A program made the position numbers and the translations under genes. Positions 14,954 through 38,843 of a DNA stretch of 64,000 bases are shown here, in pieces. This DNA comes from Herbiconiux sp. VKM Ac-1786 (GTDB lineage Bacteria > Actinomycetota > Actinomycetes > Actinomycetales > Microbacteriaceae), in NCBI RefSeq assembly GCF_015350805.1, contig NZ_JADKSG010000001.1, positions 1,178,001 to 1,242,000 of the forward strand. Reading direction: 5' to 3'. Under the pieces are notes generated by a model. It was not told the DNA's origin. It saw only the letters and a list, made by a program, of their open reading frames with translations, and did no database searches. Numbering within the stretch: the stretch's first letter is position 1; each line of letters starts with the position of its first letter.

Positions 14954-17900
14954 GTGAGGCTGTTCGAGGCGATCCGACGTCGCAAGGCGACGACGGCATC
15001 GGTCGCCACCATCGCCGCTCTGGCGATCGGCGTGACCACGATGGCGTTCCTCTACGAGGGCATCGAGACGGCCGACGTCGACCTCAACGACGGCGGCGTC
15101 TGGGTCACCAAGCCCACCGGGCTGCTGCTCGGGCACCTCAACCACCCCGCCCAGGTGATCGACGGAGGCCTCCGCACCTCCTCCACCGAGTTCGACGTGC
15201 TGCAGCGCGACGAGACCGTGCTCATGCTCGACACCTCGGGCTCCTCGCTCACCCCGGTCAACCCCGTCACCATGGCGCTCGAGGCGCCGCTCATCCTCCC
15301 CCCCGAGTCATCGGTGTCACTCGGCGGACCGACCCTCACCGTGCTCGACCGCGAGACCGGCGAGCTCTGGGCCGGCCCCTCCTCGAACGCCGCCGGCATG
15401 CAGCTCGACCCCGACGAGCCGCTCGGCGAGCTCGGGGGCGCGGGAGCCGCCGTGGCCGACGCCGCCGGCAACGTGCACGCCCTCTCGACCTCGGCCGGCC
15501 GCCTGCTCGAGTTCGACCGCGACGAGAACGGCGCCCTGCCTGACGAGCCGACCGCCACCGACTTCCCCGAGGTCGAGGAGGGCGCCCGCCTGACCCTCAC
15601 CACCGTGGGCGACCAGGCCGTCGTCTTCGACGCCTCCTCGGGCACCGTGCACCTGCCCGGCGGCCGCGTGGTCGAGCTCCCCGACGCGGAGGGCGCCGTC
15701 GTGCAGCCCACCGGGCCGGCCGCGTCCGACGTGCTGATCGCCACGAAGACCTCCCTCATCCGCCAGCCGCTCGACGGCGGCGAGCCCACCGTGATCCCCG
15801 CCGGGGGCGAACCCGGCACGCCGGCCGCCCCGGTGTTCCTGAACGGATGCGCGTACGCGGCCTGGTCGGGATCGGGGGCGTTCCTCCGCGACTGCTCGGG
15901 CGACTCGAACGACGTCGAGGACGAGATCGACGGCCTGGCGGCGAACGCCGACCTCCGCTTCCGCGTGAACCGCGACGTCGTGGTGCTGAACGACGTGTCG
16001 ACCGGCGTCGTGTTCCTGGTGAACCAGGACATGAAGAAGGTCGACAACTGGGACGACATCGCGCCCCCGCCCGAGCAGAGCGACTCCGACGAGGAGGAGG
16101 ACAGCACCGAGGACGAGCTCCAGGTGCTGCTGCCCGACCGCTCCGAGGAGAACACTCCCCCGACGGCCGAGGACGACGACTTCGGCGTGCGTGCCGGCCG
16201 CACCGTCGTGCTGCCCGTGCTCGACAACGACCTCGACCCCGACGGCGACATGCTCACCGCGAAGATCGAGGGCTCCCAGCCCGGGATCGGCGAAGTGCAG
16301 CGCATCCTGAACGGAGCGGCCCTGCAGGTCGTCGTCTCACCCGACGCCTCCGGCAGCGCGAGCTTCGGCTACACCGTCGACGACGGGCGCGGCGGCTCCG
16401 ACACCGCCACCGTCTCCCTGACGGTGCGCGCGGACGGCGAGAACACCCCGCCGAAGCAGAAGCGGGTCACCGACGTGCTGGTCGAGCTCGGAGCATCCGT
16501 CAGTCACAACGTGCTGCCCGACTTCATCGACCCCGACGGCGACGACCTCTACGTCGTCGGCGCCTCCACGGGCACCGACGACCAGGTGCAGTACCGCCCC
16601 GACGGCCAGATCACCTTCACGAGCATCGACCAGAACACCGGCCCGAAGGAGGTGACGGTCGTGCTCTCCGACGGCCGCACCGAGACCGAGGGCACCGTGC
16701 GCTTCCAGGTGCGCGACCCCGGCAGCCTCGCGCCCGTCACCAACGGCGACACCGTCGTGACGACCGTGGACGAGCGCGTGACCGTGGCGCCGATGGACAA
16801 CGACCTCAGCCCCTCGGGCGCACCGCTGCGCCTGGCGAAGGTGAACGAGACCCCGGGCGCCACCCTGCAGCCCGACTACACCACCGGCACCTTCGACTTC
16901 ACCAGCAGCACCCCCGGCGACTACTACGTGCAGTACCTCGTCTCCGACGGCCCGAAGACCGCCGAGGGCCTGGTGCGCGTCACCGTGCTGCCCGTCACCG
17001 ACAGCACCGACCCGCCGATCGCCGTGCGCGACACGGCGCAGCTGCCGAACGGCGGCACCACCCTCGTCAACGTGCTGGCCAACGACACCGACCCGAACGG
17101 CGGCATCCTCGCCGTGCAGTCGGTGCAGGTGCCGGCCGAGGCGGGCGTCAGCGTCGAGGTGCTCGAGCACGAGATCCTGCGCATCACCGACCGTGGGCTG
17201 ACCGACCCGCTCACCATCACCTACACGGTGTCCAACGGCGCCGCCTCGGCCCGCGGCGAGGTGTTCATCACCCCGATCGCCGCGCCCGACCGCCTGCTGC
17301 CGCCGAACGCCGAGAACGACGACGTCACCGTGCGCGTGAACGACATCGTGACCATCCCGGTGCTCGCCAACGACACGCACCCCAACGGCGACACGCTCAC
17401 CCTCTCGCCCACCCTGATCGACCCGGTCGTCGACCCGGCCGACGGCAGCATCTTCGTGGCCGGCGACACCGTGCGCTTCAAGGCCGGGCCCGAGCCCAAG
17501 ACCGTCTACGCCACCTACGAGGCCGTCGACTCGCAGGGCCAGAAGGACGCCGGCTACATCACCATCCGCATCGTCGGCCCCGACGACGGCACGAACGCGC
17601 CGCCGCGACCGCAGGACGTCACGATCCGGGCGCTGCAGGGCACGACCGTGCGCATCCCGATCCCGCTCGACGCCATCGACCCCGACGGCGACTCGGTCGA
17701 GCTCGTCGGCCAGAGCTCGGCGCCCACCAAGGGCCGCATCACCGAGGTCGGCGAAGCGTGGCTCGTCTACGAGGCGTACCCCGACGCATCCGGAACCGAC
17801 ACCTTCACGTACACCGTGCGCGACCGGCTGGGTGCCTCGGCCACGGCCTCGGTGCTCGTCGGCATCATCCCGGCGAGCGAGTCGAACCAGCCGCCCTACG

Positions 17901-20900
17901 CGGTGAAGGACGCCATCTCGGCCCGCCCCGGCCGCACGGTCGCGGTCGACGTGATGGAGAACGACAACGACCCCGACGGCGACCCGATCGCCATCCGCTC
18001 CGAGGGCCTCACGGTGCCCGACGGCGTGACCGCCTCGGTCGACGGCGGGCGCGTGCTCGTCACCGCTCCGAGCGAGGCCGGCGACTACACGCTGCAGTAC
18101 ACGATCGTCGACCGCTGGGGTGCGGCGGCGACCGGCACGCTGCTCATGCAGGTGAGTCCGGATGCGCCGCTCGCCTCCCCCATCGCCCGCGACGATCAGG
18201 TGCCCGTCGCCGACATGCTCGACCGCGAGACCGTCGACGTGAACGTGCGCGAGAACGACGACGACCCCGACGGCACCATCGACGGCCTGACCGTCACGAG
18301 CTCCGACCCGGCGGCGACCCCGCTCTCGAACGGCAACCTGCAGATCACGCTGCTGCCGACCTCGCAGATCATCACCTACACGGTCACCGACCAGGACGGC
18401 CTGACCGCCTCGGCCTTCGTGAACGTGCCGGGAAGCGACACGCTGCCGCCCGTGCTGCGGCCGGGCATCGAGCCGCTCGTGGTGAACGACGGCCAGACCG
18501 TCGATGTCGAGCTCGCCGACTACGTGCTGGTCGGCGAGGGCAAGTCGGTGCGGATCACCGAGGCCGACACCGTGCGGGCCGCGAACTCGAACGGCGACGA
18601 GCTGCTGGCCGACGAGGACACCCTGCGCTACACGCCCAAGCCGCGCTACGACGGGCCCGACGCGCTGAGCTTCGAGGTCACCGACGGCACGGGCCCCGAC
18701 GACCCGGACGGCCGCACGGCGACCCTCGTCATCCCCATCACCGTCGTCTCGGACTACAACACCCCGCCCACCTTCAAGGGCGCCGAGCTCACGGTCGCGG
18801 CGGGCGAGGACGAGCAGTCGATCGACCTCCGCGGCGCCGCCGAGGACCCGGACGAGGGCGACCTCGAGGCCCTGACCTTCGCGATCGTCGGCCAGGCGCC
18901 CGCCGGCGTCTCGGTGCGCCTCGACGGCTCGACCCTGGTGGCCCGGGCCGATGCCGACGCCCCGCTGAACGCCTCCACCCTCGACGTCGAGGTCTCCGAC
19001 GGGGAGAACCCCGCCGTGCGCGGAGCCGTGCAGATCTCGGTGCTCGCCACCACCCGCACGCCCCCGTCGGCGACCGACGACATCGTGCCGCAGGCCAACC
19101 AGGGCCAGACGGTCTCGGTGCCCGTGCTGGCGAACGACTTCAACCCGTTCCCCGACACCCCGCTGACGATCACCGAGGTCGCCATCGAGACCGGCACCGG
19201 CAACGCCGACTTCTCGGGCTCGGACGTCTCGGTCACTCCGGCGGCCGACTTCGTCGGCACGATGGTCGTGCGCTACGGCATCATCGACGCCACGGGCGAC
19301 CCGTCCCGGCGGGCCGACGGGCGCATCCAGCTCACCGTTCAGGGCCGACCCGACGCCCCCGCGACGCCGACGGTCACGAGCATCCAGGACCGCACCGTCG
19401 TGCTGAACTGGGCCTCGCCGGTGAACAACGGCGCCGAGATCACGAGCTACACCGTGACGAGCCCCCAGGGCTACACGAAGACCTGCGCGTCGACCACGTG
19501 CACGCTCGACGGCCTCACCAACGACGTCGAGTACACCTTCACCGTCACGGCGACGAACTCGGTGGGCACCTCCGACCCGTCGCCCTCCTCGGCCGTGGCC
19601 CGACCGGATGCGCGTCCCGACCAGCCCCAGCCGCCGACCCTGAAGTTCGGCGACAAGAGCCTCGAGGTGAACTGGGTGACGCCCCCGACCCCCGGCTCGG
19701 CGGTGCAGTCGTTCAACCTCGAGATCTCGCCCGCCCCGGCGCGCGGAGCCCCCTCGCGCTACGGCGTGACGGGCAACTCGATCGTCTGGGAGGGCCTCGA
19801 GAACGGCACGGCCTACCAGGTGCGGGTGCAGGCCGTGAACAAGGCCCCCGAGCCCTCGGACTTCAGCGCTTTCTCGGCGACCGAGATCCCGGCCGGCAAG
19901 CCGGAGGCCCCCGGACAGCCGAGCACGACCCGGCTCGACCCGGTCGGCGATCAGTCGCAGATGCGGGTGGCCTGGAGCAAGCCCTCGGGCAACGGCGACG
20001 ACAACCTCAAGTACACGCTGACGATCCTCCGCGGCGGCAGCCCGGTCGACAGCCTGCCCGGGCTCACGGCCACCGAGCAGACCGTGCGGCTCGACACCTC
20101 GGAGAGCGACTACACCTTCTCGGTGACCGCCACCAACAAGGCGGGCGAGGGCGCGCCCTCGGCGGCCTCGGCACCGCGTCGGAGCTTCACCCCGCCGGGA
20201 GCGGCCGGGCCGGCGACGATCACCTCGGAGGGCGACGGCAGCGTCACCTTCGACCGCGGCGCCAGCGCCTCGGGCAACGGCGCCTCCCAGGGCGAGCTGA
20301 TCTACCAGTACAGCGTCAACGGCGGCGGCTGGACCCCGATCCCCGGGAACGCCCAGGCCTACCAGGTCGCCGGGCTGCAGAACGGCACGAGCTACACGGT
20401 GCGGGTGCGGGCGACGACCCCGCTCGACGGGACGAATTACGAGGGCCCGGCGAGCGGCGAGTCGAACGCCGGAGTGCCGTTCGGCCCGCTCGCGCAGCCC
20501 GCGGTGTCGGCGAACGGCAACGCGAAGTCGGTGACGCTCTCCTGGAACGCCCCGGCGGGCAACGGGCGCCCCATCACGTCGATGGAGGTCTACATCGACG
20601 GGAACCTCAACTCCAACGCCGGCAACGGAACGGTGACCGTCGGAGACGCCTACAGCGAGAAGCACTCCATCCGCGTCGTGGTGAAGGACTCGGCCGGTCA
20701 GACCTCCGAGAACTCGACGAGCGCCTCGAGCGGTGACGCTCCCCCCAAGGGCGCCTTCCTGTCGTCGTGGCGGAGCTGTGACGGCGAGGGCCTGACCAAC
20801 GGGCCGCCCTGTGTGCGCATGAAGATCACGGTCGAGAACTTCCTCGGCCAGGGCAGCGTGACCTGCACCTGGAACAGCCGCACCGACGGCGACCTCACCA

Positions 20901-21037
20901 CGACCATCCCGGTCGACGGCAACGGCAACGGTTCGAAGAACCTCAGCTGGTACACCCAGGACACCGGGGCGTACTCGATGGAGAACCAGGCGTCGAACAT
21001 GAGCTGCGAAGGCACACCGGTGAAGGTCAGACGCTGA
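14954..21037 (+). CDS. Giant membrane-anchored Ig/fibronectin-III repeat protein
   Basis: 2027 residues. A short basic cytoplasmic tail (RLFEAIRRRK) and one membrane helix (about 17-36) are followed by an outside region of propeller-like sequence (about 40-370), an acidic linker with SDSDEEEDSTEDE (about 375-400), about eleven tandem cadherin/Big_9-like Ig repeats (about 400-1460) marked by NDxDPDGD calcium-site-like motifs, about five fibronectin III repeats (about 1461-1935) and a Cys-containing C-terminal domain (about 1940-2027). There is no LPXTG or other sorting signal. GTG 14954 is chosen for GGAG six bases upstream. It heads the cluster with MoxR, DUF58, FHA, kinase and EccC-like genes and probably forms the wall-spanning part. 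Exact role unknown. Confidence 0.85.
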   Translation: MRLFEAIRRRKATTASVATIAALAIGVTTMAFLYEGIETADVDLNDGGVWVTKPTGLLLGHLNHPAQVIDGGLRTSSTEFDVLQRDETVLMLDTSGSSLTPVNPVTMALEAPLILPPESSVSLGGPTLTVLDRETGELWAGPSSNAAGMQLDPDEPLGELGGAGAAVADAAGNVHALSTSAGRLLEFDRDENGALPDEPTATDFPEVEEGARLTLTTVGDQAVVFDASSGTVHLPGGRVVELPDAEGAVVQPTGPAASDVLIATKTSLIRQPLDGGEPTVIPAGGEPGTPAAPVFLNGCAYAAWSGSGAFLRDCSGDSNDVEDEIDGLAANADLRFRVNRDVVVLNDVSTGVVFLVNQDMKKVDNWDDIAPPPEQSDSDEEEDSTEDELQVLLPDRSEENTPPTAEDDDFGVRAGRTVVLPVLDNDLDPDGDMLTAKIEGSQPGIGEVQRILNGAALQVVVSPDASGSASFGYTVDDGRGGSDTATVSLTVRADGENTPPKQKRVTDVLVELGASVSHNVLPDFIDPDGDDLYVVGASTGTDDQVQYRPDGQITFTSIDQNTGPKEVTVVLSDGRTETEGTVRFQVRDPGSLAPVTNGDTVVTTVDERVTVAPMDNDLSPSGAPLRLAKVNETPGATLQPDYTTGTFDFTSSTPGDYYVQYLVSDGPKTAEGLVRVTVLPVTDSTDPPIAVRDTAQLPNGGTTLVNVLANDTDPNGGILAVQSVQVPAEAGVSVEVLEHEILRITDRGLTDPLTITYTVSNGAASARGEVFITPIAAPDRLLPPNAENDDVTVRVNDIVTIPVLANDTHPNGDTLTLSPTLIDPVVDPADGSIFVAGDTVRFKAGPEPKTVYATYEAVDSQGQKDAGYITIRIVGPDDGTNAPPRPQDVTIRALQGTTVRIPIPLDAIDPDGDSVELVGQSSAPTKGRITEVGEAWLVYEAYPDASGTDTFTYTVRDRLGASATASVLVGIIPASESNQPPYAVKDAISARPGRTVAVDVMENDNDPDGDPIAIRSEGLTVPDGVTASVDGGRVLVTAPSEAGDYTLQYTIVDRWGAAATGTLLMQVSPDAPLASPIARDDQVPVADMLDRETVDVNVRENDDDPDGTIDGLTVTSSDPAATPLSNGNLQITLLPTSQIITYTVTDQDGLTASAFVNVPGSDTLPPVLRPGIEPLVVNDGQTVDVELADYVLVGEGKSVRITEADTVRAANSNGDELLADEDTLRYTPKPRYDGPDALSFEVTDGTGPDDPDGRTATLVIPITVVSDYNTPPTFKGAELTVAAGEDEQSIDLRGAAEDPDEGDLEALTFAIVGQAPAGVSVRLDGSTLVARADADAPLNASTLDVEVSDGENPAVRGAVQISVLATTRTPPSATDDIVPQANQGQTVSVPVLANDFNPFPDTPLTITEVAIETGTGNADFSGSDVSVTPAADFVGTMVVRYGIIDATGDPSRRADGRIQLTVQGRPDAPATPTVTSIQDRTVVLNWASPVNNGAEITSYTVTSPQGYTKTCASTTCTLDGLTNDVEYTFTVTATNSVGTSDPSPSSAVARPDARPDQPQPPTLKFGDKSLEVNWVTPPTPGSAVQSFNLEISPAPARGAPSRYGVTGNSIVWEGLENGTAYQVRVQAVNKAPEPSDFSAFSATEIPAGKPEAPGQPSTTRLDPVGDQSQMRVAWSKPSGNGDDNLKYTLTILRGGSPVDSLPGLTATEQTVRLDTSESDYTFSVTATNKAGEGAPSAASAPRRSFTPPGAAGPATITSEGDGSVTFDRGASASGNGASQGELIYQYSVNGGGWTPIPGNAQAYQVAGLQNGTSYTVRVRATTPLDGTNYEGPASGESNAGVPFGPLAQPAVSANGNAKSVTLSWNAPAGNGRPITSMEVYIDGNLNSNAGNGTVTVGDAYSEKHSIRVVVKDSAGQTSENSTSASSGDAPPKGAFLSSWRSCDGEGLTNGPPCVRMKITVENFLGQGSVTCTWNSRTDGDLTTTIPVDGNGNGSKNLSWYTQDTGAYSMENQASNMSCEGTPVKVRR

Positions 21038-21083
21038 CCCCGCCTCACACCTCCCCGATCCACCCGACAAGACGAGGAACGCG

Positions 21084-22058
21084 ATGACGATGACCCCCGA
21101 GCAGGCGACGTGGTTCGCCGGCACCTTCGACCGGCTGACCCAGAACGTGGGGCTGGCCGTGCTGGGCAAGGACCACGTGGTGCGCCTGACCCTGATGGCG
21201 ATGATCGCCGAGGGCCACGTGCTGCTCGAGGACGCCCCCGGCACGGGCAAGACCAGCCTCGCGAAGGCGATCGCGGCGACCGTGCAGGGCACGAGCCAGC
21301 GCATCCAGTTCACGCCCGACCTGCTGCCCTCCGACGTCACCGGCGTGACGATCTACGACCAGGACACGCGCAAGTTCGACTTCCACAAGGGACCGATCTT
21401 CGCCTCGATCGTGCTCGCCGACGAGATCAACCGCGCCAGCCCGAAGACGCAGTCGGCGCTGCTAGAGGTGATGGAGGAGTCGCGGGTCTCCGTCGACGGC
21501 GTCGCCCACGAGGTCGGCCGCCCCTTCCTCGTGATCGCGACCCAGAACCCGATCGAGCAGGCCGGCACCTACCGGCTGCCCGAGGCGCAGCTCGACCGCT
21601 TCCTGATCAAGACGTCGATCGGCTACCCCGACCTCGCGTCGGCCGAGCAGATCCTCGCCGGCTCGGCGAACCGCAACCCCTCCTCGGGCCTGTCGCCCGT
21701 GATCACCACCTCCGCGGTCGCCGACATGGCCGACCTCGCCGCGACGGTGCACGTCGACCCGGCCATCCTGCGCTACACGGCGCAGCTCGCCGAGGAGACC
21801 CGCAACGCCCCCGAGTCGCGCCTCGGCGTCTCGGTGCGCGGCGCGATGGCGCTGATCCGCGCCTCGAAGGTCTGGGCCGCCTCGCAGGGCCGGCACTTCG
21901 TGCTGCCCGACGACATCAAGGAGCTCGCGGGGCCGGTCTGGACCCACCGCTTCGTGCTCGACGCCGAGGCCGAGTTCTCGGGGGCGTCGGCCGAGGGCGT
22001 GCTCGCCCGCGTGCTGGCCGACGTCGCCGCACCGCAGTCGAGGCAACCCGCTGCATGA
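21084..22058 (+). CDS. MoxR-family AAA+ ATPase
   Basis: 324 residues. Walker A EDAPGTGKTS (about 50-59), Walker B IVLADEINRASP and sensor ATQNPIEQAGTYRLPEAQLDRF are all intact, as in MoxR chaperone-like ATPases. Members usually partner with DUF58/VWA proteins and mature or assemble protein complexes in the cytoplasm at the membrane. ATG 21084 has GAGGAA upstream. It lies 46 bp after the giant Ig-protein gene and its stop overlaps the ATG of the DUF58 gene by four bases, so a MoxR-DUF58 pair is made together. Confidence 0.95.
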   Translation: MTMTPEQATWFAGTFDRLTQNVGLAVLGKDHVVRLTLMAMIAEGHVLLEDAPGTGKTSLAKAIAATVQGTSQRIQFTPDLLPSDVTGVTIYDQDTRKFDFHKGPIFASIVLADEINRASPKTQSALLEVMEESRVSVDGVAHEVGRPFLVIATQNPIEQAGTYRLPEAQLDRFLIKTSIGYPDLASAEQILAGSANRNPSSGLSPVITTSAVADMADLAATVHVDPAILRYTAQLAEETRNAPESRLGVSVRGAMALIRASKVWAASQGRHFVLPDDIKELAGPVWTHRFVLDAEAEFSGASAEGVLARVLADVAAPQSRQPAA

Positions 22059-27979: not shown

Positions 27980-27980
27980 G

Positions 27981-31081: not shown

Positions 31082-31836
31082 GCACCCCCGACGAGACCAC
31101 CGCCCCGCCGCCCACCGCTCCGGCGACCCGCTCCGACGCGAACGTCGAGTTCTGCGGCGAGTGGTTCGCCCTCGACCCGGCCAAGCCCTTCGAGATCGGC
31201 CGCGACGCCGACCTCGACATCGACGACAACCAGTACCTGCACCGCCGCTTCCTGCAGATCGCGAACGTCGACGGCATGTGGTGGCTCTCGAACGTCGGCT
31301 CCCGCCTCAGCGCCACGGTCTCCGACGCCAGCCGCACGATGCAGGCCTGGCTCGCCCCCGGCGCCCGCATGCCGATCGTCTTCGGCCTCACCACCGTGGT
31401 CTTCACCGCCGGCCCCACGAGCTACGAGTTCACCGTGCACACGAGTGCTCCGACGTTCTTCGACTCCACCCCGGTGCCCGACGGCAGCGGGGCGACCACC
31501 GTCGGCGCCGTCACCTTCACCGCCTCGCAGAAGCTGCTCATCCTGGCCCTCGCCGAGCCGATGCTGAAGCGCGACGGCACCGGCACGAGCGAGATCCCCT
31601 CGAGCCAGCTCGCCGCCGAACGGCTCGGCTGGGCGCTCAGCCGCTTCAACCGCAAGCTCGACAACGTCTGCGACAAGCTCAGCCGCACCGGCGTCGAGGG
31701 CCTCCGCGGCGGCGTCGGCGCCCTCGCCACCAACCGCCGGGCACGGCTCGTCGAGTACGCGGTGCTCTCGCGCCTCGTCACGAAGAACGACCTCCCGCTG
31801 CTCGACCAGCCCCACGACGACAACGACGACAGGTAG
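31078..31836 (+). CDS. FHA protein with C-terminal winged-helix-like region
   Basis: 252 residues, soluble. An FHA domain (about 18-115) shows FEIGRDADLDI, LHRRFLQI and NVGSRLSATV; the usual Ser before His is not obvious, so phosphopeptide binding may be altered. A C-terminal alpha-helical part (about 135-245) with SSQLAAERLGWALSRFNRKLDNVCDKL resembles a winged-helix or oligomerisation unit. Two starts are possible: ATG 31069 or GTG 31078. I use GTG because it overlaps the kinase stop as GTGA, the pattern used repeatedly in this operon, with GGGA eight bases before. Confidence 0.82.
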   Translation: MSTPDETTAPPPTAPATRSDANVEFCGEWFALDPAKPFEIGRDADLDIDDNQYLHRRFLQIANVDGMWWLSNVGSRLSATVSDASRTMQAWLAPGARMPIVFGLTTVVFTAGPTSYEFTVHTSAPTFFDSTPVPDGSGATTVGAVTFTASQKLLILALAEPMLKRDGTGTSEIPSSQLAAERLGWALSRFNRKLDNVCDKLSRTGVEGLRGGVGALATNRRARLVEYAVLSRLVTKNDLPLLDQPHDDNDDR

Positions 31837-31842
31837 CACCGG

Positions 31843-34800
31843 ATGCGCATCAAGGCCACCCTGCGACGCCCCGGTGGCTCGGCGTCGAACCTCCAGATCA
31901 CCGCCGACGCCACCGCGAGCGTCGGCGACATCGCCGAGGCGATCCACCTCGCCGACCCGCAGCTGAGCGAGTACCAGCGCGCCCAGGTGCCCGCGGGGCT
32001 CACCCTGCAGGTCACCGGCACGAGCGGCGAGCAGCGGGTCGTCGACCCGGCCTCGAACCTGATCGAGGCCGGCGTGCGCTCGGGCTCGGTGCTCGAGCTC
32101 GCCCGGCACAGCGACGGCTTCAGCTCGGGCAGCCACGGCCCGGCGGCGGCGACGCTCCGGGTGCTCAGCGGGCCGGATGCGGGGGCCGAGTTCTCGCTCC
32201 CCTTCGGCTCCAGCTACATCGGCCGCGAGCGTGGCATCGACGTGCGGCTGAGCGACGGTCTGGTGTCCAAACGGCACGCCCGCATCAACATCGGCGAGCA
32301 GGTCGAGATCGTCGACATGAAGTCGGCGAACGGCCTGCTGATGGGCGGCGAGCAGGTCGCCCGCACCACGCTGAGCTCCGCCGACGTCGTCGTGCTCGGC
32401 GACACCGCGATCTGCGTCGTGCCGCTGCAGCGCCTCGGCGGCGCCGCGCCCTCGACGCCGGTGATCGAGTTCAACCGCTCACCGCGGGTCGTGGCGCGCT
32501 ACCCCGGCTCCGAGTTCCCGGCACCCACGCCGCCCAAGCAACCGCAGTCGCTGCGCTTCCCGCTGGTGGCGCTGATCGCCCCGCTGATCATGGGCCCCAT
32601 CCTGTTCGCCGCGACCGGCAACGCGCTCAGCCTCGTCTTCATCGCGCTGAGCCCGATCCTGATGATCGGCACCTGGCTCGACCACAAGCTGCAGACCCGC
32701 TCCCAGCTGAAGGCGGCCATCAAGCAGTTCAACGAGTCACTCGACGCCTTCGTCGCGTCGATGCACGAGCGCCAGCGGGTGCAGCGGGCGGTGCGGCTCA
32801 CCGAGGCCCCGGCGGTGGCCGCGACGATCGACGCCGTGCAGCGCCTGGGTCAGCTGATGTGGACGCACCGGCCCGAGCATCCGTCGTTCCTGACCGCCCG
32901 GCTCGGCCTCGGCACCTCGCTCAGCCGCGACGTCGTGACCACCCCGAACGAGAACGACGCCCTGCCCGAGTACTACGCGCAGGTCGAGCAGACCGCCGAC
33001 CGCTTCTCGCGGATCGACGGGGTGCCGATCGTGGTCGAGCTGCGCAAGGCCGGCGCCCTCGGCGTCGCCGGCCCGGCCGAGCAGCGGCACGGCGTCGCCC
33101 GCGGCATCGTGACGCAGCTCGTCGGGCTGCACTCCCCCGCCGAGCTCGTGGTCGCCGCGGTCGTCTCCCCCACCTCGCGCGCCACCTGGGAATGGCTCGA
33201 GTGGCTGCCCCACACCAGCTCGCCGCACAGCCCGCTGGCCGGTGACCACCTGGCCGACAACCCCGGCTCCGGATCCGCGCTCCTCGCCCGCCTCGAGGAC
33301 CTCATCTCGCGTCGCACGCGGGGCGGCCCCTCCCCCCGCGGGCCGATCGACACCAGCGGAAAGAGCGGCGAGGACGAGCTCGTGCATCCGATCACCCCCT
33401 CGGTGCTCGTGGTGATCGAGGACGACGCACCGCTGGACCGAGGCCGCCTCACCCGCCTCGTCGAGCGCGGGGCCGACGCGAACGTGCACGTGCTCTGGTC
33501 GGCGCCCTCGATCGCCGCCCTGCCGGCCGCCTGCCGCAGCTTCGTCAGCGTCGACCAGGACGCGAAGGGCGCGACCGCCGGCCAGGTGCGCCTCGGCGAG
33601 CACACCTTCCCGCTCGAGTGCGAGACCGTCGACGCCGAGACGGCCCACCGCGTCTCGCGCCAGCTCGCGCCCGTGATCGACGTCGGCGCCCCCGTCGACG
33701 ACGACTCCGACCTCCCGCGCCAGGTCTCGTACCTGACGCTCGTGGGCTCCGAGCTCGCCGACGAGCCCGAGGCCGTGATCGACCGCTGGCGCGAGAGCAA
33801 CTCGATCGCCCTCCGCGATGGGTCGCCACACGTTCGCCGCAAGCAGGCCGGATCGCTGCGCGCGCTCGTCGGGCACTCGGGCACCGAGCCGTTCTACCTC
33901 GACATCCGCAACCAGGGCCCGCACGCCCTCGTCGGCGGCACCACCGGCGCCGGCAAGTCCGAGTTCCTGCAGTCGTGGGTGCTCGGCATGGCGGCGGCGC
34001 ACAGCCCCGACCGGGCAACGTTCCTGTTCGTCGACTACAAGGGCGGCGCGGCCTTCGCCGAGTGCGTCGGCCTGCCTCACACGGTCGGTCTCGTCACCGA
34101 CCTGTCGCCGCACCTCGTGCGCCGCGCGCTGACCAGCCTGCGCGCCGAGCTGCGCTACCGCGAGCACCTGCTCAACCGGAAGAAGGCGAAGGACCTCGTC
34201 TCGCTCGAGAAGACGGGCGACCCCGACACCCCGCCGAGCCTGCTGATCGTGGTCGACGAGTTCGCCGCCCTCGTGAACGAGGTGCCCGAGTTCGTCGACG
34301 GCGTCGTCGACGTCGCCCAGCGCGGGCGCTCGCTCGGCCTCCACCTCATCCTCGCCACCCAGCGTCCCGCCGGCGTGATCAAGGACAACCTGCGCGCCAA
34401 CACGAACCTGCGCATCGCCCTCCGGATGGCCGACGCCGACGACTCCAGCGACATCCTAGGCGACCCGATGGCCGCCTACTTCGACCAGTCGATCCCCGGC
34501 CGCGGCGCCGCGAAGACCGGGCCCGGGCGGCTCGCCCCGTTCCAGACCGGCTACGCGGGCGGCTGGACGACCAGCACCCCGCCGCGCCCCCGGATCGACC
34601 TCGTCGAGATGGACTTCGGTGCCGGAGCCGCGTGGGAGGTGCCCGAGGACGAGGAGACCCCCGAGTCGGTCGAGCAGGGGCCCACCGACATCGCGCGGTT
34701 GGTCACGAGTATCCGTCACGCCGCCTCGATGGCGAAGATCCCCGAACCCCGCAAGCCCTGGCTCGACGAGCTCGCGGCGGTCTACGACTTCTCGCTGCTG

Positions 34801-36294
34801 CCCAACCCGAGAACGGATGAGCGGCTGCTCCTCGGCGTGATCGACGACCCGGCGAGCCAGAGCCAGCCCACCGTGTTCTACGAGCCCGACCGCGACGGCA
34901 ACATGGCCGTGCTCGGCACCGGAGGCTCGGGCAAGAGCGCCACGCTCCGCACCATCGCCGTCTCGGCCGCGGTCACGCCGCGTGGTGGCCCGGTGCACGT
35001 CTACGGCCTTGACTTCGGCTCGAGCGGCCTCAGCATGCTCGAGGAGCTGCCGCACGTCGGCGCCATCATCTCCGGCGACGACGAGGAGCGGGTGGTGCGC
35101 CTGCTGCGGCGGCTGCGCGACCTGGTCGACGACCGCTCCATCCGCTACTCGGCCGTGCGCGCCGGATCGATCGGGGACTACCGGCGCATCGCCGACGCCC
35201 CGCAGGAGCCGCGCATCCTGGTGCTCGTCGACGGCATCGGCGCCTTCCGGGAGCAGTACGAGTTCGGCGGGCACTCGGCCTGGTTCACGACCTTCGCCCA
35301 GATCGCCACCGACGGCCGCCAGGTGGGCGTGCACATCGTCGTCGCGGGCGACCGGCCGAACTCGGTGCCGGCGTCGCTCGGCTCGACCATCCAGCGGCGG
35401 CTCGTGCTGCGCATGGCGAACGACGACGACTACGCGCTGCTCGGCGCCCCGAAGGACACGCTGAGCGCCGTCTCCCCGCCCGGCCGCGGCGTGATGGACG
35501 GCAACGAGGTGCAGATGGCGGTGCTCGGGGCCGACTCGAACGTGGCCATCCAGTCCCGCGAGATCTCCAAGCTCGCCGAGGCCATGCGCCGGCAGGGGGT
35601 GACGGATGCTCCGCCGATCCAGACCCTCGGTGACGCCATCCCGCTCAGCACGCTCCCCGCCGTCGCGGCAGGGCAGCCCGTGATCGGCGTGCGCGACGAC
35701 ACCCTCGGCGCCCTCGGCATCTCGCCCTCGGGAGCGATGCTCGTCGCCGGAACCGCCGGCAGCGGGCGGTCGACGGCGCTCGCGACCATCGCGACGGCGC
35801 TGCGACGGGCCGACCCGGGCATCCGTCTCGTGCACATCTCACCGCGCAAGACGAGCCTCACCCCGCTGCCGCTCTGGAGCCTCTCGCTGAGCGACCCGGC
35901 GCAGATCGCGGCCTTCGCCGACGACGTGAGCGCGCAGCTCGACGCCGAGACGCTGAAGCCGACGCAGTTCGCGGTGTTCGTCGAGAACGTCGGCGAGCTG
36001 AACGGGAGCCCCGCCGAGGGCGACGTCGACCGGCTCGTGAAGCGGGCGCTGCGCGACGACGTGTTCGTGATCGGCGAGAGCGAGTCGTCGACCTGGTCGG
36101 CGGCCTGGACGCTCGGCGGAGCCTTCAAGAACTCCAAGCGCGGGCTGCTGCTGGTGCCGGGCGACCTCGACGGCGACTCGCTGCTCGGCACCTCGCTCGG
36201 CCGGTTCAAGCGGGCGGATCTGCCGCCTGGCCGGGGGTTCTACGTGCAGGGCGGCCGGGTCGTGAAGCTGCAGGTCGCGACCAGGGACGACTGA
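31843..36294 (+). CDS. EccC/EssC-type FtsK ATPase with ubiquitin-like and FHA domains
   Basis: 1483 residues. In order: a ubiquitin/YukD-like domain (about 1-90, ending EAGVRSGSVLEL), an FHA domain (about 105-200, YIGRERGIDV, SKRHARI, KSANGLLMG), two membrane helices (about 232-280), a region unique to EccC/EssC, then three FtsK/SpoIIIE modules. Module 1 has Walker A GGTTGAGKS (Lys705) and Walker B LLIVVDEFAAL. Module 2 has GTGGSGKS (Lys1031) but LVLVDGIGAF at Walker B. Module 3 has GTAGSGRS (Arg1309 for Lys). This is the motor of type VII secretion; domain order is closest to Firmicute EssC. The stop lies inside a hairpin (36293-36312), and WXG100 genes follow. Confidence 0.93.
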   Translation: MRIKATLRRPGGSASNLQITADATASVGDIAEAIHLADPQLSEYQRAQVPAGLTLQVTGTSGEQRVVDPASNLIEAGVRSGSVLELARHSDGFSSGSHGPAAATLRVLSGPDAGAEFSLPFGSSYIGRERGIDVRLSDGLVSKRHARINIGEQVEIVDMKSANGLLMGGEQVARTTLSSADVVVLGDTAICVVPLQRLGGAAPSTPVIEFNRSPRVVARYPGSEFPAPTPPKQPQSLRFPLVALIAPLIMGPILFAATGNALSLVFIALSPILMIGTWLDHKLQTRSQLKAAIKQFNESLDAFVASMHERQRVQRAVRLTEAPAVAATIDAVQRLGQLMWTHRPEHPSFLTARLGLGTSLSRDVVTTPNENDALPEYYAQVEQTADRFSRIDGVPIVVELRKAGALGVAGPAEQRHGVARGIVTQLVGLHSPAELVVAAVVSPTSRATWEWLEWLPHTSSPHSPLAGDHLADNPGSGSALLARLEDLISRRTRGGPSPRGPIDTSGKSGEDELVHPITPSVLVVIEDDAPLDRGRLTRLVERGADANVHVLWSAPSIAALPAACRSFVSVDQDAKGATAGQVRLGEHTFPLECETVDAETAHRVSRQLAPVIDVGAPVDDDSDLPRQVSYLTLVGSELADEPEAVIDRWRESNSIALRDGSPHVRRKQAGSLRALVGHSGTEPFYLDIRNQGPHALVGGTTGAGKSEFLQSWVLGMAAAHSPDRATFLFVDYKGGAAFAECVGLPHTVGLVTDLSPHLVRRALTSLRAELRYREHLLNRKKAKDLVSLEKTGDPDTPPSLLIVVDEFAALVNEVPEFVDGVVDVAQRGRSLGLHLILATQRPAGVIKDNLRANTNLRIALRMADADDSSDILGDPMAAYFDQSIPGRGAAKTGPGRLAPFQTGYAGGWTTSTPPRPRIDLVEMDFGAGAAWEVPEDEETPESVEQGPTDIARLVTSIRHAASMAKIPEPRKPWLDELAAVYDFSLLPNPRTDERLLLGVIDDPASQSQPTVFYEPDRDGNMAVLGTGGSGKSATLRTIAVSAAVTPRGGPVHVYGLDFGSSGLSMLEELPHVGAIISGDDEERVVRLLRRLRDLVDDRSIRYSAVRAGSIGDYRRIADAPQEPRILVLVDGIGAFREQYEFGGHSAWFTTFAQIATDGRQVGVHIVVAGDRPNSVPASLGSTIQRRLVLRMANDDDYALLGAPKDTLSAVSPPGRGVMDGNEVQMAVLGADSNVAIQSREISKLAEAMRRQGVTDAPPIQTLGDAIPLSTLPAVAAGQPVIGVRDDTLGALGISPSGAMLVAGTAGSGRSTALATIATALRRADPGIRLVHISPRKTSLTPLPLWSLSLSDPAQIAAFADDVSAQLDAETLKPTQFAVFVENVGELNGSPAEGDVDRLVKRALRDDVFVIGESESSTWSAAWTLGGAFKNSKRGLLLVPGDLDGDSLLGTSLGRFKRADLPPGRGFYVQGGRVVKLQVATRDD

Positions 36295-36312
36295 TGGGGA
36301 CTTCTCCCCATC
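36293..36312. promoter_or_regulatory. Perfect hairpin / shared TGGGGAC element at the ATPase stop
   Basis: Stem gatgggga (36293-36300) and tccccatc (36305-36312) with loop cttc, overlapping the TGA of the ATPase gene. No U tract follows. Its core matches the element at 14768 before the first gene of the cluster, so it may be a protein-binding site, an RNA hairpin, or both. Confidence 0.55.
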
Positions 36313-36339
36313 GCCGTCAGCGACAGGTGTCAATAGTGT

Positions 36340-36388: not shown

Positions 36389-36412
36389 GCCGCGGAGATG
36401 AAGGAGAGAATC

Positions 36413-36679: not shown

Positions 36680-36687
36680 CGTTCGCA

Positions 36688-36720
36688 GGGGGCGGGGGCT
36701 TCGGCTTCCGCCCCCTTCTT
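36688..36720 (+). terminator. Hairpin terminator or attenuator between the two WXG100 genes
   Basis: Stem gggggcgg (36688-36695) and ccgccccc (36708-36715), loop of 12, followed by TTCTT. It sits nine bases after the first WXG100 stop. Because the second gene follows after another 28 bp in the same direction, partial read-through would give more of the first product than of the second. Confidence 0.75.
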
Positions 36721-36748
36721 CCGTCCATCACTACTCGGAGAGGGTGTC

Positions 36749-37828
36749 ATGCCCGGTGGTTTCTACGGCGCCGATGTCGACGAGCTGCGCACGCTCGCGA
36801 AGCAGTTCGACACGGCCGCCTCACAGCTCGAGACGGTCGGTACGACCCTCAGCTCGAGCGTCAATCAGACGCAGGCCTGGCAGGGTCCTGACGCATCGCA
36901 GTTCCGCAGCGACTGGAACGGCACGCACACGGCGCAGCTGAAGGCCGCCGTGGCCGCGCTCACCAACGGGAGCACGGGGCTGTTGAAGAACGCCGACGAG
37001 CAGAACGCGGCGTCGACCGACTCCATCGGGGGCGGGGCGGGGGCCGGCGCGGGGGGCGGCGGTTCGACCGGGGGCTCCGGCGGGTCGGGGTCGGGCGGGT
37101 CGGGCTCCGGTTCGGGCGGCTCCGGATCCGGTGGCTCGGGCTCCGGCTCGGGCTCCGGTGATGACGACGGCAACGGCCCGTGGACCGGCACGAATTCCGA
37201 CACCAGCGTTGAGGGCAGCACCGGCATCGGCACCGCCGAGGGCAAGGCCGAGGGCACCTGGCAGTGGGGTGCCGGCGCCGAGGCGTCCGGCGAGTTCGGC
37301 GACGACACCTTCGGCGGCGAGGGATCCGCGGGTGCGATGGTCGGTGCCGAGGGCACGGCGTCGGCCGAGGGATCCATCGGCTGGGACGAGGGTGCCCAGG
37401 GCGAGGCCTCCGTCGGGGGCTTCGTGGGTGCCAAGGCCGAGGCCGAGGGATCGGTGTCGGCGCTGAACGGCTTCGCCGAGGCGGAGGGCAGCGCATCCGT
37501 CATGGCCGGTGCCGAGGCGAACGCCACCATCGGCGGATCGATCGGCCCCGACAGCATCGGCGTGAACGCCGGTGTCGACGCCTTCGCCGGCGCCAAGGCC
37601 GAGGCCGAGGGATCGGTCTCGGTGGCCGGAGCGACCGCCACGGTCGGCGGTGAGGTCTACGCCGGGATCGGCGGCCACGCGAACATCGACGTGGGCGTCG
37701 ACGGCGACACCTTCAACGGCACCATCGACGTCGGAGCCGCTCTGGGCATCGGCGCCGGCGTGAGCTTCGACTTCGAGATCGACGCCTCCGACACCATCGA
37801 CTCGATCGGCAACCTGTTCGGGCTGTGA
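36749..37828 (+). CDS. WXG100 protein with Gly/Ser linker and Gly/Ala-rich repeat tail
   Basis: 359 residues. The first 90 residues are a WXG100 helical hairpin with WQG (Trp44-Gln-Gly46). A Gly/Ser linker (about 95-138, GSGGSGSGS type) follows, then about 220 residues alternating small and charged residues, with KAEAEGSVS twice 54 residues apart, SIGPDSIGVNAGVDAFAG, and an end of VGAALGIGAGVSFDFEIDAS. No known toxin, enzyme or anchor motif is present. The alternation suggests stacked beta strands, perhaps an amphipathic or membrane-active sheet. It is the best candidate for a dedicated secreted effector of the cluster. GAGAGGG lies before ATG 36749. Confidence 0.88.
   Translation: MPGGFYGADVDELRTLAKQFDTAASQLETVGTTLSSSVNQTQAWQGPDASQFRSDWNGTHTAQLKAAVAALTNGSTGLLKNADEQNAASTDSIGGGAGAGAGGGGSTGGSGGSGSGGSGSGSGGSGSGGSGSGSGSGDDDGNGPWTGTNSDTSVEGSTGIGTAEGKAEGTWQWGAGAEASGEFGDDTFGGEGSAGAMVGAEGTASAEGSIGWDEGAQGEASVGGFVGAKAEAEGSVSALNGFAEAEGSASVMAGAEANATIGGSIGPDSIGVNAGVDAFAGAKAEAEGSVSVAGATATVGGEVYAGIGGHANIDVGVDGDTFNGTIDVGAALGIGAGVSFDFEIDASDTIDSIGNLFGL
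37430..37617 (+). repeat. Internal 26-bp direct repeat in the WXG100 tail
   Basis: The same 26 bases occur at 37430-37455 and 37592-37617, 162 bp (54 codons) apart and in frame, encoding AKAEAEGSV twice. The spacing suggests that the tail grew by duplication of a unit of about 54 residues. Confidence 0.8.
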
Positions 37829-37869
37829 CCCGACTTGCCCTCCTCCCCGACTTCAGAAAGGCTCGAACC

Positions 37870-38346
37870 ATGCCCCAGACACTGACCTTCCCCGGTGACG
37901 CCGCTCCCGGCCTGCCGACGATCGGCCTCACGGTGCCCGACGACTGGACCCCGCTCGCCGCTCCCGGCGCCGTGCTCGCGACCGGCAAGACGGTCGAGCC
38001 CGGCACCTTCCGGCCGAACGTCGTGGTCGCGATCACCCGCTTCACGGCCGGCTACGCGCTGCAGACCGCGATCGACGAGGTGACCGCGCGCGTCGAGGCG
38101 CTGCCGGGTGTCGTCGAGGGCGGCCGCGAGGCGCAGGAGGTGCTCGGCCGCGACGGCTACCGCATCGAGTTCAGCTACCCCGACGAGCGGGTGGGCACCC
38201 TCATGCAGGGCGTGCGGATCGTCGTCGTCGAGAACGGCCCCGTCGCCGACCTGGTGCAGATCACCGCCACCGCGACCGGGTCGCAGGCGCTGTCGCTCTG
38301 GGGCGAGCTGCGCGAGATCCAGTCGAGCGCGGTGACGACCGTCTGA
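37870..38346 (+). CDS. Small LpqN/PsbP-Mog1-like protein of the secretion-like cluster
   Basis: 158 residues without signal peptide or lipobox. The pattern TVPDDWTPLAAPGAVLA, then FRPNVVVAITRF, then a helix TAIDEVTARVEALPGV and strands ending in LVQITATAT resembles the Mog1/PsbP alpha/beta fold seen in LpqN-type mycobacterial proteins and in secretion-linked DUF1795 proteins. I place it there by pattern only. ATG 37870 has AAAGG nine bases upstream; a GTG at 37825 overlapping the previous stop is the alternative. A chaperone or accessory role for the WXG100 tail protein is possible but unproven. It overlaps the next gene. Confidence 0.72.
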   Translation: MPQTLTFPGDAAPGLPTIGLTVPDDWTPLAAPGAVLATGKTVEPGTFRPNVVVAITRFTAGYALQTAIDEVTARVEALPGVVEGGREAQEVLGRDGYRIEFSYPDERVGTLMQGVRIVVVENGPVADLVQITATATGSQALSLWGELREIQSSAVTTV

Positions 38347-38843
38347 TGGCCGCTCCGCTCGCCGACGCCCAGAACGCCGTGCTCGCGCTGAACAGCGAGG
38401 AGCTGCCCTTCGTCTACACGGCGGAGCCCGACGGCCTCCGCGCCACCTGGAAGTACGCCGACGTCAAGTGGGCCTCCTTCACGGCGGCCGGCCTGATCGA
38501 CCGCGCCTACGAGCTGCGGGTCGAGCTCGACCCCGCCGAGGGCACCTGGACCTTCCACGAGACGGACACCTCGTCCGACGTGACCGCCCGCGCCCGTCCG
38601 GGTGGCATCGGCATCTCGGGCGGCACCTCGACGTTCTCGGGCCGGCAGAAGAAGATCTCGTTCGAGTTCGGCGCCACTCCGGTCGCGGCCGAGTCGACCG
38701 ACCGTCAGGGCACCCACGTCGGCAACACCTACGGCTACTCCTTCACGACCGACGAGGTGAAGGCGCCCCTCATCGAGGCCCTCACGGCGGCGGGCTACAC
38801 CCCGAAGAAGCAGGGCTTCTTCGGCAAGCTCTTCGGCGGCTGA
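38346..38843 (+). CDS. Conserved-looking protein of unknown function, last gene of the cluster
   Basis: 165 residues, soluble, no signal peptide. It starts within the stop of the preceding gene (TGATG), so the two are co-translated. The sequence alternates strands (FVYTAEPDGLRATWKYADVKWASF, YELRVELDPAEGTWTFHETD) and ends in a basic, hydrophobic KKQGFFGKLFGG tail that could touch the membrane. I do not recognise a family. Its place directly behind the WXG100 genes suggests an accessory of that system. Confidence 0.75.
   Translation: MAAPLADAQNAVLALNSEELPFVYTAEPDGLRATWKYADVKWASFTAAGLIDRAYELRVELDPAEGTWTFHETDTSSDVTARARPGGIGISGGTSTFSGRQKKISFEFGATPVAAESTDRQGTHVGNTYGYSFTTDEVKAPLIEALTAAGYTPKKQGFFGKLFGG

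What the first reader, a model, noticed from the sequence alone, without database searches (positions are those of the whole stretch)
14954..38843. 24 kb one-strand cluster: EccC-like ATPase and WXG100 proteins wired to kinase, phosphatase, four FHA proteins, MoxR-DUF58-transglutaminase fold and a giant Ig/Fn3 protein
All fourteen genes run the same way, most with overlapping stop/start codons, which argues for one functional unit. WXG100 substrates and an EssC-like motor are established marks of type VII secretion. MoxR-DUF58-TgpA trios, PP2C/PknB pairs and FHA adaptors are known separately. Seeing them fused in one operon with a 2027-residue wall-side protein suggests a phospho-regulated type VII-like machine whose parts and substrates are not those of ESX or the Firmicute system.
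Basis: partly seen in the sequence, partly recalled or inferred. Interest (0 to 1): 0.88.

Follow-up and report, generated by a model that had tools for sequence, protein, structure and literature searches.

The report
Phospho-wired actinobacterial type VII locus
A soil and plant bacterium (Herbiconiux-like) carries a 24 kb gene cluster that joins a type VII protein-secretion motor and its small cargo proteins to a kinase-phosphatase signalling and cell-surface module, and a short DNA palindrome recurs in front of many of the cargo genes in related bacteria, which suggests one jointly controlled machine.

Summary
In detail: 14 co-directional genes at 14954-38843, mostly overlapping; only the fourth FHA protein (g9) is unconfirmed. 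The cluster is syntenic across Actinomycetales families (79 of 79 named loci with enough upstream DNA keep kinase-g9-ATPase; 72 keep TgpA to ATPase). It unites two things published apart: the Bifidobacterium 'PFNA' operon and kinase-bearing FHA-ATPase/WXG100 type VII systems (nearest: T7SSd). New here: (1) a palindrome, TGGGGA-N4-TCCCCA, 114-166 bp before 38 of 45 WXG100 genes in named loci, before some distant WXG100 genes, and before 14 of 21 Ig/Fn3 genes; (2) a beta-grasp domain fused to the ATPase, a candidate for the ubiquitin-like part reported missing from T7SSd; (3) a 'transglutaminase' without its catalytic cysteine in 101 of 101 PFNA-type copies examined; (4) intact kinase, phosphatase and ATPase-FHA residues, so phospho-control is plausible; (5) interchangeable C-termini on the second WXG100 protein. 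Against one machine: PFNA occurs without this ATPase clade in 68 of 248 genomes and as a second copy here, and some ATPases of the clade lack PFNA nearby. Secretion and phospho-gating are inferred, not shown. New variant of a known kind.

The parts
14768..14783 (.). palindrome ('T7 box', degenerate: 2 mismatches in 12 arm bases); its start lies 186 bp before the g1 start codon
   Evidence: one of only two such sites in the 64 kb
14954..21037 (+). g1: 2027-aa protein, N-terminal membrane anchor (read by eye), ten Big_9 and three fn3 stretches
   Evidence: residues 1-400 have no Pfam match better than E 0.18
21084..22058 (+). g2: MoxR-type AAA+ ATPase
   Evidence: AAA_3 E 3e-62, AAA_lid_2
22055..23353 (+). 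g3: DUF58 protein
   Evidence: E 4e-12
23353..25812 (+). g4: TgpA-like membrane protein with transglutaminase-like core lacking the catalytic Cys (Asp526 in its place)
25809..27110 (+). g5: RDD membrane domain plus FHA
   Evidence: GR/SKTH/STNG motif conserved (75 sequences)
27107..27979 (+). g6: PP2C phosphatase, metal-binding residues intact
   Evidence: Asp47, Asp127, Asp201 and Asp240 in 87 of 87
27981..29492 (+). g7: FHA protein
   Evidence: GR/SRxH/TNG motif conserved (78 sequences)
29489..31081 (+). g8: Ser/Thr kinase with one membrane segment (by eye), catalytic residues intact
   Evidence: K, HRD, DFG in 93 of 93
31078..31836 (+). g9: conserved 252-aa protein, FHA-like N-terminus and helix-turn-helix-like C-terminus by eye only
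   Evidence: alignment; no family; no convincing solved relative (best E 0.17)
31843..36294 (+). g10: type VII ATPase: beta-grasp domain, FHA, membrane segments (by eye), three FtsK-type stretches
36295..36310 (.). palindrome TGGGGACTTCTCCCCA ('T7 box'); its start lies 118 bp before the g11 start codon
36413..36679 (+). g11: WXG100 protein (88 aa; an upstream ATG at 36398 is possible)
36688..36715 (+). strong RNA hairpin between g11 and g12
   Evidence: -30.1 kcal/mol, z -4.5; 1 of 200 shuffles as stable
36749..37828 (+). g12: WXG100 domain + Gly-rich linker + repetitive alternating C-terminal domain (candidate cargo)
37825..38346 (+). g13: LpqN-like protein, no lipobox seen by eye (candidate partner/chaperone)
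   Evidence: PF10738 E 3e-8; 3lyd E 6.5e-16
38346..38843 (+). g14: protein of no known family, conserved in Herbiconiux and some others

Best explanation
The cluster is a two-module unit. Module A (g1-g9) is an actinobacterial form of the PFNA operon: a transmembrane kinase and a PP2C phosphatase set the phosphorylation of FHA-readable partners, and MoxR, DUF58 and a catalytically dead TgpA-like membrane protein serve the giant Ig/Fn3 envelope protein. Module B (g10-g14) is a type VII export module: a membrane ATPase with a fused beta-grasp domain and a phosphothreonine-competent FHA domain, a small WXG100 protein, and a WXG100-headed cargo with an interchangeable C-terminus plus a small LpqN-like partner. 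Most likely mechanism: the kinase phosphorylates a component (its own tail, g5, g7 or another); the FHA domain of the ATPase docks on it, so export is assembled or opened only under the envelope condition that the kinase senses; g11/g12 are then exported, with the g1 rod and the g4/g5 membrane proteins standing in for the EccB- or EssB-type parts that were not found. A palindromic element before the WXG100 and Ig/Fn3 genes co-expresses cargo and envelope part. Shown: gene content, synteny, intact catalytic and FHA residues, missing Cys, palindrome. Inferred: export, phospho-gating, conduit role of g1/g4/g5, activator role of the palindrome.
For: Synteny: canonical order in other genomes; 79 of 79 named loci with at least 700 bp before the ATPase have g9 and the kinase directly upstream, 72 keep TgpA-RDD/FHA-PP2C-FHA-PknB-g9-ATPase. 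Rearranged but still linked in G031, G290, G082, G129, G033, G273. Order sample of 248 genomes: 72 have an ATPase of this clade, 66 of these also a PFNA-type TgpA among the listed rows, 43 of the 66 within 25 kb, median 8.6 kb. Herbiconiux: the two genomes with no type VII ATPase of either type (G002, G013) have no WXG100 at E <= 0.001; the other 13 tested have 1-3. FHA residues R, S, H, N, G of the ATPase intact in 30 of 30 and 27 of 27 clade members; kinase 93 of 93, PP2C 87 of 87. Palindrome. Interchangeable cargo C-termini.
Against: PFNA-type TgpA without an ATPase of this clade in 68 of 248 genomes; a second PFNA locus without ATPase or palindrome in this genome. ATPase loci without PFNA nearby, among others G023, G021, G016, G185, G154, G322 and the second type in G012 and G003. 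WXG100 found downstream of the ATPase in only 35 of 69 named loci with more than 2.5 kb there; most Arthrobacter-type loci lack it. Palindrome: absent before g1 in 7 of 21 loci; found before only 11 of 29 WXG100 places tested away from the main loci; no sigma-70-like promoter on the + strand near either window site. Six of 72 ATPase genomes have no listed PFNA TgpA. No secretion or phosphorylation data exist here.
Confidence: 0.55

Rival explanations
1. It is simply a T7SSd system (Garrett et al. 2024), already described, whose neighbours were not listed.
For: T7SSd has WXG100, an FHA-ATPase with conserved phosphothreonine site, a kinase and a giant Ig-like protein (passages and section read).
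Against: Published T7SSd has five components including TsdH (one TM) and TsdI (signal peptide, C-terminal TM); no TsdH-like gene is seen among the 14 and g1 looks N-terminally anchored without a C-terminal TM (by eye, no TM predictor run). In G436 a T7SSd-like locus (WXG-like gene, kinase, 1797-aa giant, ATPase) lies 33 kb from a PFNA-type TgpA, so the sets are separable, and its ATPase falls outside the window clade; its FHA residues are not conserved, so it may not be typical T7SSd. No named T7SSd sequence could be compared.
Confidence: 0.2
2. Two unrelated modules are neighbours for expression convenience: PFNA is an envelope-adhesion/stress system, and the type VII module works without it.
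For: PFNA-type TgpA without an ATPase of the clade in 68 of 248 genomes; ATPase without PFNA nearby in several; second PFNA copy in this genome has no palindrome.
Against: 66 of 72 ATPase genomes also have PFNA; linkage persists through rearrangements; the palindrome marks WXG100 genes and also Ig/Fn3 genes of PFNA loci lying apart from the ATPase (G249, G131, G185, G154) and the PP2C gene in G538 and G017 (in G017 PFNA is about 5 kb from the ATPase); ATPase FHA intact in 27 of 27.
Confidence: 0.2
3. Anti-phage defence island (kinase plus pump ATPase, as in MADS).
For: PADLOC models PD-T4-6 (E 3e-55) and mad6 (E 4.6e-50) match g8, mad8 (E 6e-42) matches g10.
Against: These are generic kinase and FtsK/HerA domain matches; no methyltransferase or nuclease among the 14 genes; conserved synteny and a WXG100-linked DNA element.
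Confidence: 0.03

Closest known systems
T7SSd (Garrett, Higginson and Palmer 2024, PMC11217815; abstract, passages and sections 5, 7, 9, 16 read)
   Same: Actinomycetota; WXG100; EssC/EccC-type ATPase with an N-terminal FHA domain whose phosphothreonine site is conserved; Ser/Thr kinase; giant Ig-like envelope protein; no free ubiquitin-like gene found.
   Different: Here also MoxR, DUF58, TgpA-like protein, RDD-FHA, PP2C, further FHA protein, g9, LpqN-like protein; g1 looks N-terminally anchored; no TsdH seen; beta-grasp domain fused to the ATPase. The text held of that paper has no 'MoxR' or 'transglutaminase'.
PFNA operon of Bifidobacterium (PMC8430577: abstract and passages; PMC6803598: passages)
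   Same: pkb2, fn3, aaa-atp (MoxR), duf58, tgm, prpC and an FHA gene as gene types; phosphorylation of MoxR by Pkb2 is reported there.
   Different: Those texts have no 'WXG' or 'FtsK'; gene order differs; the putative transglutaminase is called 'presumably a cysteine protease', whereas here the Cys is absent.
T7SSb (Ess/Yuk) of Bacillota
   Same: EssC-like ATPase with FHA, WXG100, kinase-like fold in EssB (as described in PMC11217815); cargo with a constant helical head and variable C-terminus (LXG proteins, recalled).
   Different: No EssB/YukC in 8 of 8 genomes; that paper states that EssC FHA lacks the phosphothreonine site, here it is intact; the kinase motifs are intact.
EspM of ESX-1 (PMC7002343, passages)
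   Same: N-terminal FHA and C-terminal helix-turn-helix regulator beside a type VII locus: the model for g9.
   Different: g9 has no match to the EspM model or any NCBIfam family at E <= 0.01.
esxA/esxB-eccC-eccB genes of Actinotignum schaalii (PMC5720513, passages)
   Same: WXG100 genes close to an FtsK/SpoIIIE-type gene in an actinobacterium outside the mycobacteria.
   Different: Named there as an ESX-1-like set; kinase, FHA, MoxR or Ig/Fn3 genes are not mentioned in the passages seen; sequences not compared.

Membership tests
T7SSd | WXG100 gene at the locus | tested here: met
T7SSd | ATPase with FHA and conserved phosphothreonine site | tested here: met
T7SSd | membrane Ser/Thr kinase (TsdD) | tested here: met
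   TM by eye
T7SSd | TsdH, small one-TM protein | tested here: inconclusive
   none seen among the 14 by eye; no TM predictor run, very short frames not searched
T7SSd | TsdI: Ig-like giant with signal peptide and C-terminal TM | tested here: inconclusive
   giant Ig-like protein present; topology read by eye differs
T7SSd | ATPase nests in the TsdC clade | not testable with these tools
   no named TsdC sequence; a T7SSd-like locus by arrangement falls outside the window clade
T7SSa / ESX | EccB | tested here: not met
   PF05108 not found in the window genome and 5 other genomes of 8; found in G031 and G212, on other contigs; none of the 14 control genomes rang
T7SSa / ESX | EccC-type ATPase clade | tested here: not met
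   separate from the EccC of G031 and G212 (which lie near EccB) with SH-like support 1.000
T7SSa / ESX | EccD, EccE, MycP | not tested
   searches spent on EccB, YukD and YukC
T7SSb | EssB/YukC | tested here: not met
   PF10140 0 of 8 genomes; control rang in Bacillus subtilis
T7SSb | free YukD/EsaB | tested here: not met
   in the window genome the only PF08817 match at E <= 0.1 is the ATPase N-terminus, E 0.08
T7SSb | EssA, EsaA | not tested
   no search made
PFNA operon | kinase, Fn3, MoxR, DUF58, tgm as core gene types | tested here: met
   order differs (kinase after tgm here). The order PknB-Ig/Fn3-MoxR-DUF58-TgpA occurs in 6 unnamed small genomes (MoxR detected in 5, PP2C in 2)
Active transglutaminase | catalytic Cys | tested here: not met
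   Asp 80, Glu 6, Gln 2, Ala 2 in 90 of 90; Ser in 6 and Asp, Glu, Ala, Asp in 4 further loci, Ala in the second own copy; a more distant homologue in the same genome keeps Cys. His kept in 76 and Asp in 75 of 90

The most novel reading that the evidence does not exclude
PFNA and this type VII module form one phospho-controlled regulon: g9 is an EspM-like FHA-HTH activator that binds the TGGGGA-N4-TCCCCA box near the -35 region of WXG100, Ig/Fn3 and phosphatase genes, even where these lie far apart, and the dead transglutaminase, RDD and Ig/Fn3 proteins build the wall conduit of a type VII system that has kept only the ATPase of the classical channel (EccB and EssB tested as missing, the others untested) and carries its ubiquitin-like subunit fused to the ATPase N-terminus.
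Probability: 0.25. Interest if true: 0.85.

Novelty: new variant of a known kind. Interest (0 to 1): 0.66.

Why it matters
It links two separately published systems and gives each a testable part. The PFNA operon, studied as an immune-sensing system of Bifidobacterium, would gain a relative tied to protein export, and its 'transglutaminase' a likely correction: the catalytic cysteine is missing in every PFNA-type copy examined here (named Bifidobacterium sequences not tested). The type VII field would gain a candidate for the ubiquitin-like subunit reported missing from T7SSd, and a DNA element that can help to list cargo genes in Actinomycetales. If the kinase gates the ATPase through its FHA domain, this would be a direct model for phospho-controlled type VII secretion in harmless soil bacteria.

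Tried and rejected
Defence island: PADLOC hits are generic kinase and FtsK domains. Member of ESX or Ess: EccB and EssB not found. Beta-grasp domain: Foldseek showed only FHA or FHA-like hits in its 50 displayed rows of 1506, so support rests on strand order at pLDDT about 90, YukD matches in 4 of 28 members (best E 0.0057, below cut-off) and 'redesigned ubiquitin' as best PDB sequence hit (E 0.04): moderate, not proof. The G436 ATPase N-terminus looks beta-grasp-like by eye, but Pfam gave only SLBB, E 0.18. g9 as FHA-HTH: no support from Pfam or PDB, weak hhalign; the g9 line was shifted by trimming and is not used. g12 C-terminal structure: model confidence low (pLDDT 57.8), so no fold search was made; only hydropathy alternation (lag-2 z 2.2-5.8 in 12 of 12) is used. 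Cargo C-termini of other genera: no Pfam family reached its cut-off in 5 proteins, the WXG100 head only weakly, and none in L169. Promoter/terminator scans at the two window sites: nothing useful. Literature on the palindrome: one search, nothing relevant among the 10 titles listed of 12. Searches for a paper on the union of PFNA and type VII genes (T7SSd): none found in this open-access library.

Counting notes. The 80 named loci are the best 80 of 553 relatives and so lean towards close ones; some unnamed G genomes are the same assemblies as named ones, so sequence counts contain duplicates. The 24/18/17/13 counts of the class sample and their bit cut-offs (180, 1375) are mine, by hand; the order-sample lists are cut at about 209 bits (TgpA) and I used at least 960 bits (ATPase). 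One search used g4 sequences of at least 500 aa and above 250 bits (kinase 250 aa, PP2C 200 aa, same score). Its MoxR columns (20 sequences) contain misaligned rows and are not used. Fisher p ignores kinship and is not used as proof. The palindrome was noticed in the window first, so the window count (pattern drawn from the two sites) is post hoc; the test is in the relatives. L171 ('Sporosarcina') is probably a contaminated assembly but was counted among the 80.
Full report
What is there. The window is base 1178001-1242000 of contig C1 of a 3.89 Mb genome. Its closest named ATPase relative is Herbiconiux gentiana CPCC 205716 (97% identity), so it is a Herbiconiux-like member of Microbacteriaceae. 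Fourteen genes run on the + strand from 14954 to 38843, nearly all with overlapping or touching ends; the larger gaps are 46 bases before g2, 118 before g11 and 69 before g12. Domain calls are and the parts list. The flanks look unrelated: MFS transporters on both sides, two minus-strand frames of no known family upstream, and a HipA-like gene on the other strand just downstream.

Synteny. In 40 relatives the ATPase falls into close orthologues (80-99% identity, mostly the genus), further orthologues at 44-60%, and a second type of about 50% in some Herbiconiux. Full canonical order (Ig/Fn3, MoxR, DUF58, TgpA, RDD-FHA, PP2C, FHA, PknB, g9, ATPase) occurs in G015, G035, G029, G032, G314 and G212, in seven further Herbiconiux genomes whose upstream DNA was read, in G022 of another genus and in G404. 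Named loci (best 80 of 553) come from Herbiconiux, Agreia, Subtercola, Cryobacterium, Rathayibacter, Microbacterium, Cellulosimicrobium, Luteimicrobium, Antribacter, Oerskovia, Brachybacterium, Arthrobacter, Pseudarthrobacter, Paenarthrobacter, Psychromicrobium and a Renibacterium-labelled MAG, plus unplaced MAGs and one doubtful record. 79 of the 79 with at least 700 bp before the ATPase keep kinase and g9 in front of it; 72 keep the seven-gene order from TgpA on. Elsewhere the same genes are rearranged but stay together (G031, G290, G082, G129, G033, G273).

How tight is the link? In a class sample of 296 genomes, g9 (at least 180 bits, my cut) is in 24, an ATPase of at least 1375 bits in 18, both in 17; in 13 of the 17 they lie within 20 kb (hand count). 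In an order sample of 248 genomes, 72 have an ATPase of the clade, 134 a PFNA-type TgpA among the listed rows, 66 both; of these 43 lie within 25 kb, 9 far apart on one contig, 14 on different contigs of sometimes fragmented assemblies. So the ATPase mostly comes with PFNA, but PFNA often comes without this ATPase (68 genomes; other type VII ATPases were not excluded there). Seven loci with PFNA and no ATPase hit of the clade nearby were read (G249, G131, G085, G185, G322, G154, G273), the last four having it elsewhere. This genome itself has a second PFNA locus on contig 2 (PP2C, kinase, Ig/Fn3, MoxR, DUF58, TgpA, a protein hit by the RDD-FHA model) with neither ATPase nor palindrome in the 37.5 kb read. 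In the genus, the two genomes with no type VII ATPase of either type (G002, G013) have no WXG100 match, and the other 13 tested have 1-3; one of these, G003, has only the second type.

Active or dead parts. Kinase Lys, HRD and DFG are intact in 93 of 93 sequences; PP2C metal aspartates in 87 of 87. The FHA domain of the ATPase keeps R, S, H, N and G in 30 of 30 sequences of alignment A3 and in 27 of 27 clade members including those with PFNA elsewhere; outside the clade it is mixed (intact in G206, G025, G028; changed or not aligned in the others), and three ESX-group EccC have no aligned residues there. The FHA motifs of g5 and g7 are conserved too. ATPase site 1 is intact; in site 3 the P-loop lysine is Arg in most. 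By contrast the transglutaminase-like g4 lacks the catalytic Cys in 90 of 90 sequences (Asp 80, Glu 6, Gln 2, Ala 2), while the His and Asp columns keep their residue in 76 and 75 of 90. The Cys is also absent in 10 further loci: Ser in six small genomes with the PFNA gene order, which I take for Bifidobacteriaceae from gene order, size and GC without names, and Asp, Glu, Ala, Asp in four others; and in the second own copy (Ala). A more distant homologue in the same genome keeps it (GYCVHF). The core aligns to the solved TgpA of PDB 6g49 only downstream of the Cys, so the Cys position is set by the motif. PMC8430577 calls the Bifidobacterium protein 'presumably a cysteine protease' (passage).

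The ATPase N-terminus. AlphaFold2 with 30 sequences gives mean pLDDT 90 with strand-strand-helix-(short helix)-strand-strand-strand in residues 1-90, followed by an FHA domain. YukD is the most frequent Pfam match of this stretch (4 of 28 members, best E 0.0057, below cut-off), and in the window genome the only YukD match at E <= 0.1 is this place (E 0.08). Garrett et al. report that no ubiquitin-like protein could be found for T7SSd (section read). A fused domain would be a simple reason why a gene search misses one; for published T7SSd this is untested.

The palindrome. It was noticed in the window, before g1 and g11, and then tested in relatives. TGGGGA-N4-TCCCCA occurs exactly 30 times in the 1.78 Mb of the 80 named loci, 0 times in three first-order Markov simulations, and seven control palindromes with altered or scrambled arms occur 0 times. 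38 of 45 WXG100 genes found there by the g11 model have it with at most 2 of 12 arm mismatches, 114-166 bp upstream; of the seven misses three (5 mismatches) follow another WXG100 gene and four (3 mismatches) are Cryobacterium and Rathayibacter. With at most one mismatch there are 44 sites: 35 lie 40-220 bp before a WXG100 gene, six lie behind the ATPase or a WXG100 cluster at contig ends, three elsewhere. Of 29 WXG100 places tested away from these loci, 11 have it with at most 2 mismatches: distant genes in G005 (0), G001 (1), G029 (1 and 1), G314 (2 and 2) and G035 (1), both genes of G017 (1), and the first gene beside another ATPase type in G131 and G249 (1 each). The other 18 do not: six of G223, three beside the second ATPase type in Herbiconiux, four later genes of G131 and G249, and single genes of G022, G035, G032, G029 and G085. 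It precedes Ig/Fn3 genes in 14 of 21 loci, window included (at most 2 mismatches), among them PFNA loci apart from a clade ATPase (G249, G131, G185, G154), and the PP2C gene in G538 and in G017, where PFNA is about 5 kb from the ATPase. Downstream alignment shows a TA-rich hexamer about 22 bases after the box and no -35 match, by eye; the sigma-70 scan found no + strand promoter there. An activator site is my reading. The regulator is unknown; g9 is a guess by analogy with EspM (passages).

Cargo. The second gene after the ATPase often has a constant WXG100 head and different C-termini: an Ala/Gly-rich repeat domain in Herbiconiux, Subtercola, Luteimicrobium, Oerskovia and Microbacterium yannicii, and hydrophobic, helical-looking domains in Cryobacterium, Rathayibacter, M. 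album and Antribacter (by eye). This is how type VII toxin cargo behaves (LXG proteins; recalled). The repeat domain shows hydropathy alternation in 12 of 12 sequences and a low-confidence model of eight long strands of mostly about 24 residues, which would suit a membrane-active beta structure; that is a guess. Some genera (Agreia, Cellulosimicrobium, Brachybacterium) have the small WXG100 gene and the LpqN-like gene without it. g13 resembles LpqN and solved protein 3lyd; a chaperone role is a guess.

Reading. The two modules are best seen as one co-controlled unit in this clade. The ATPase has an FHA domain fit to read the output of the neighbouring kinase; cargo and the Ig/Fn3 rod often share a DNA element; the classical parts tested (EccB, EssB) are missing. 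Export, phospho-gating and the conduit role remain to be shown. The tree (FastTree, 41 sequences) splits the ATPase clade from the rest with support 1.000, the rest including ESX EccC and a T7SSd-like locus of G436; whether the published T7SSd names cover this clade could not be tested.

Noticed in passing
36688-36715: Very stable GC hairpin between the two WXG100 genes (-30.1 kcal/mol, z -4.5), perhaps setting the ratio of g11 to g12 transcripts.
   Followed up: partly
L206-L207 (own genome contig 2, about 269800-284200): A second PFNA-type locus without ATPase, WXG100 or palindrome in the stretch read; its transglutaminase-like protein also lacks Cys (Ala).
   Followed up: yes
L232-L233 (G436), L234-L235 (G384): T7SSd-like locus with WXG-like protein, kinase, 1797-aa giant, 1523-aa ATPase and a small protein that recalls g13 by eye (no Pfam match), 33 kb from a PFNA-type TgpA (read in G436; the G384 flanks were fetched but not annotated).
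   Followed up: partly
L171: Record labelled Sporosarcina beigongshangi carries an Arthrobacter-like cluster: probable contamination of that assembly.
   Followed up: no
L019-L020, L041-L042 (G012, G003): A second, about 50% identical ATPase type in Herbiconiux with a kinase just upstream and no palindrome before its WXG100 gene.
   Followed up: partly
38857-40527: HipA-like kinase gene convergent with the end of the cluster.
   Followed up: no
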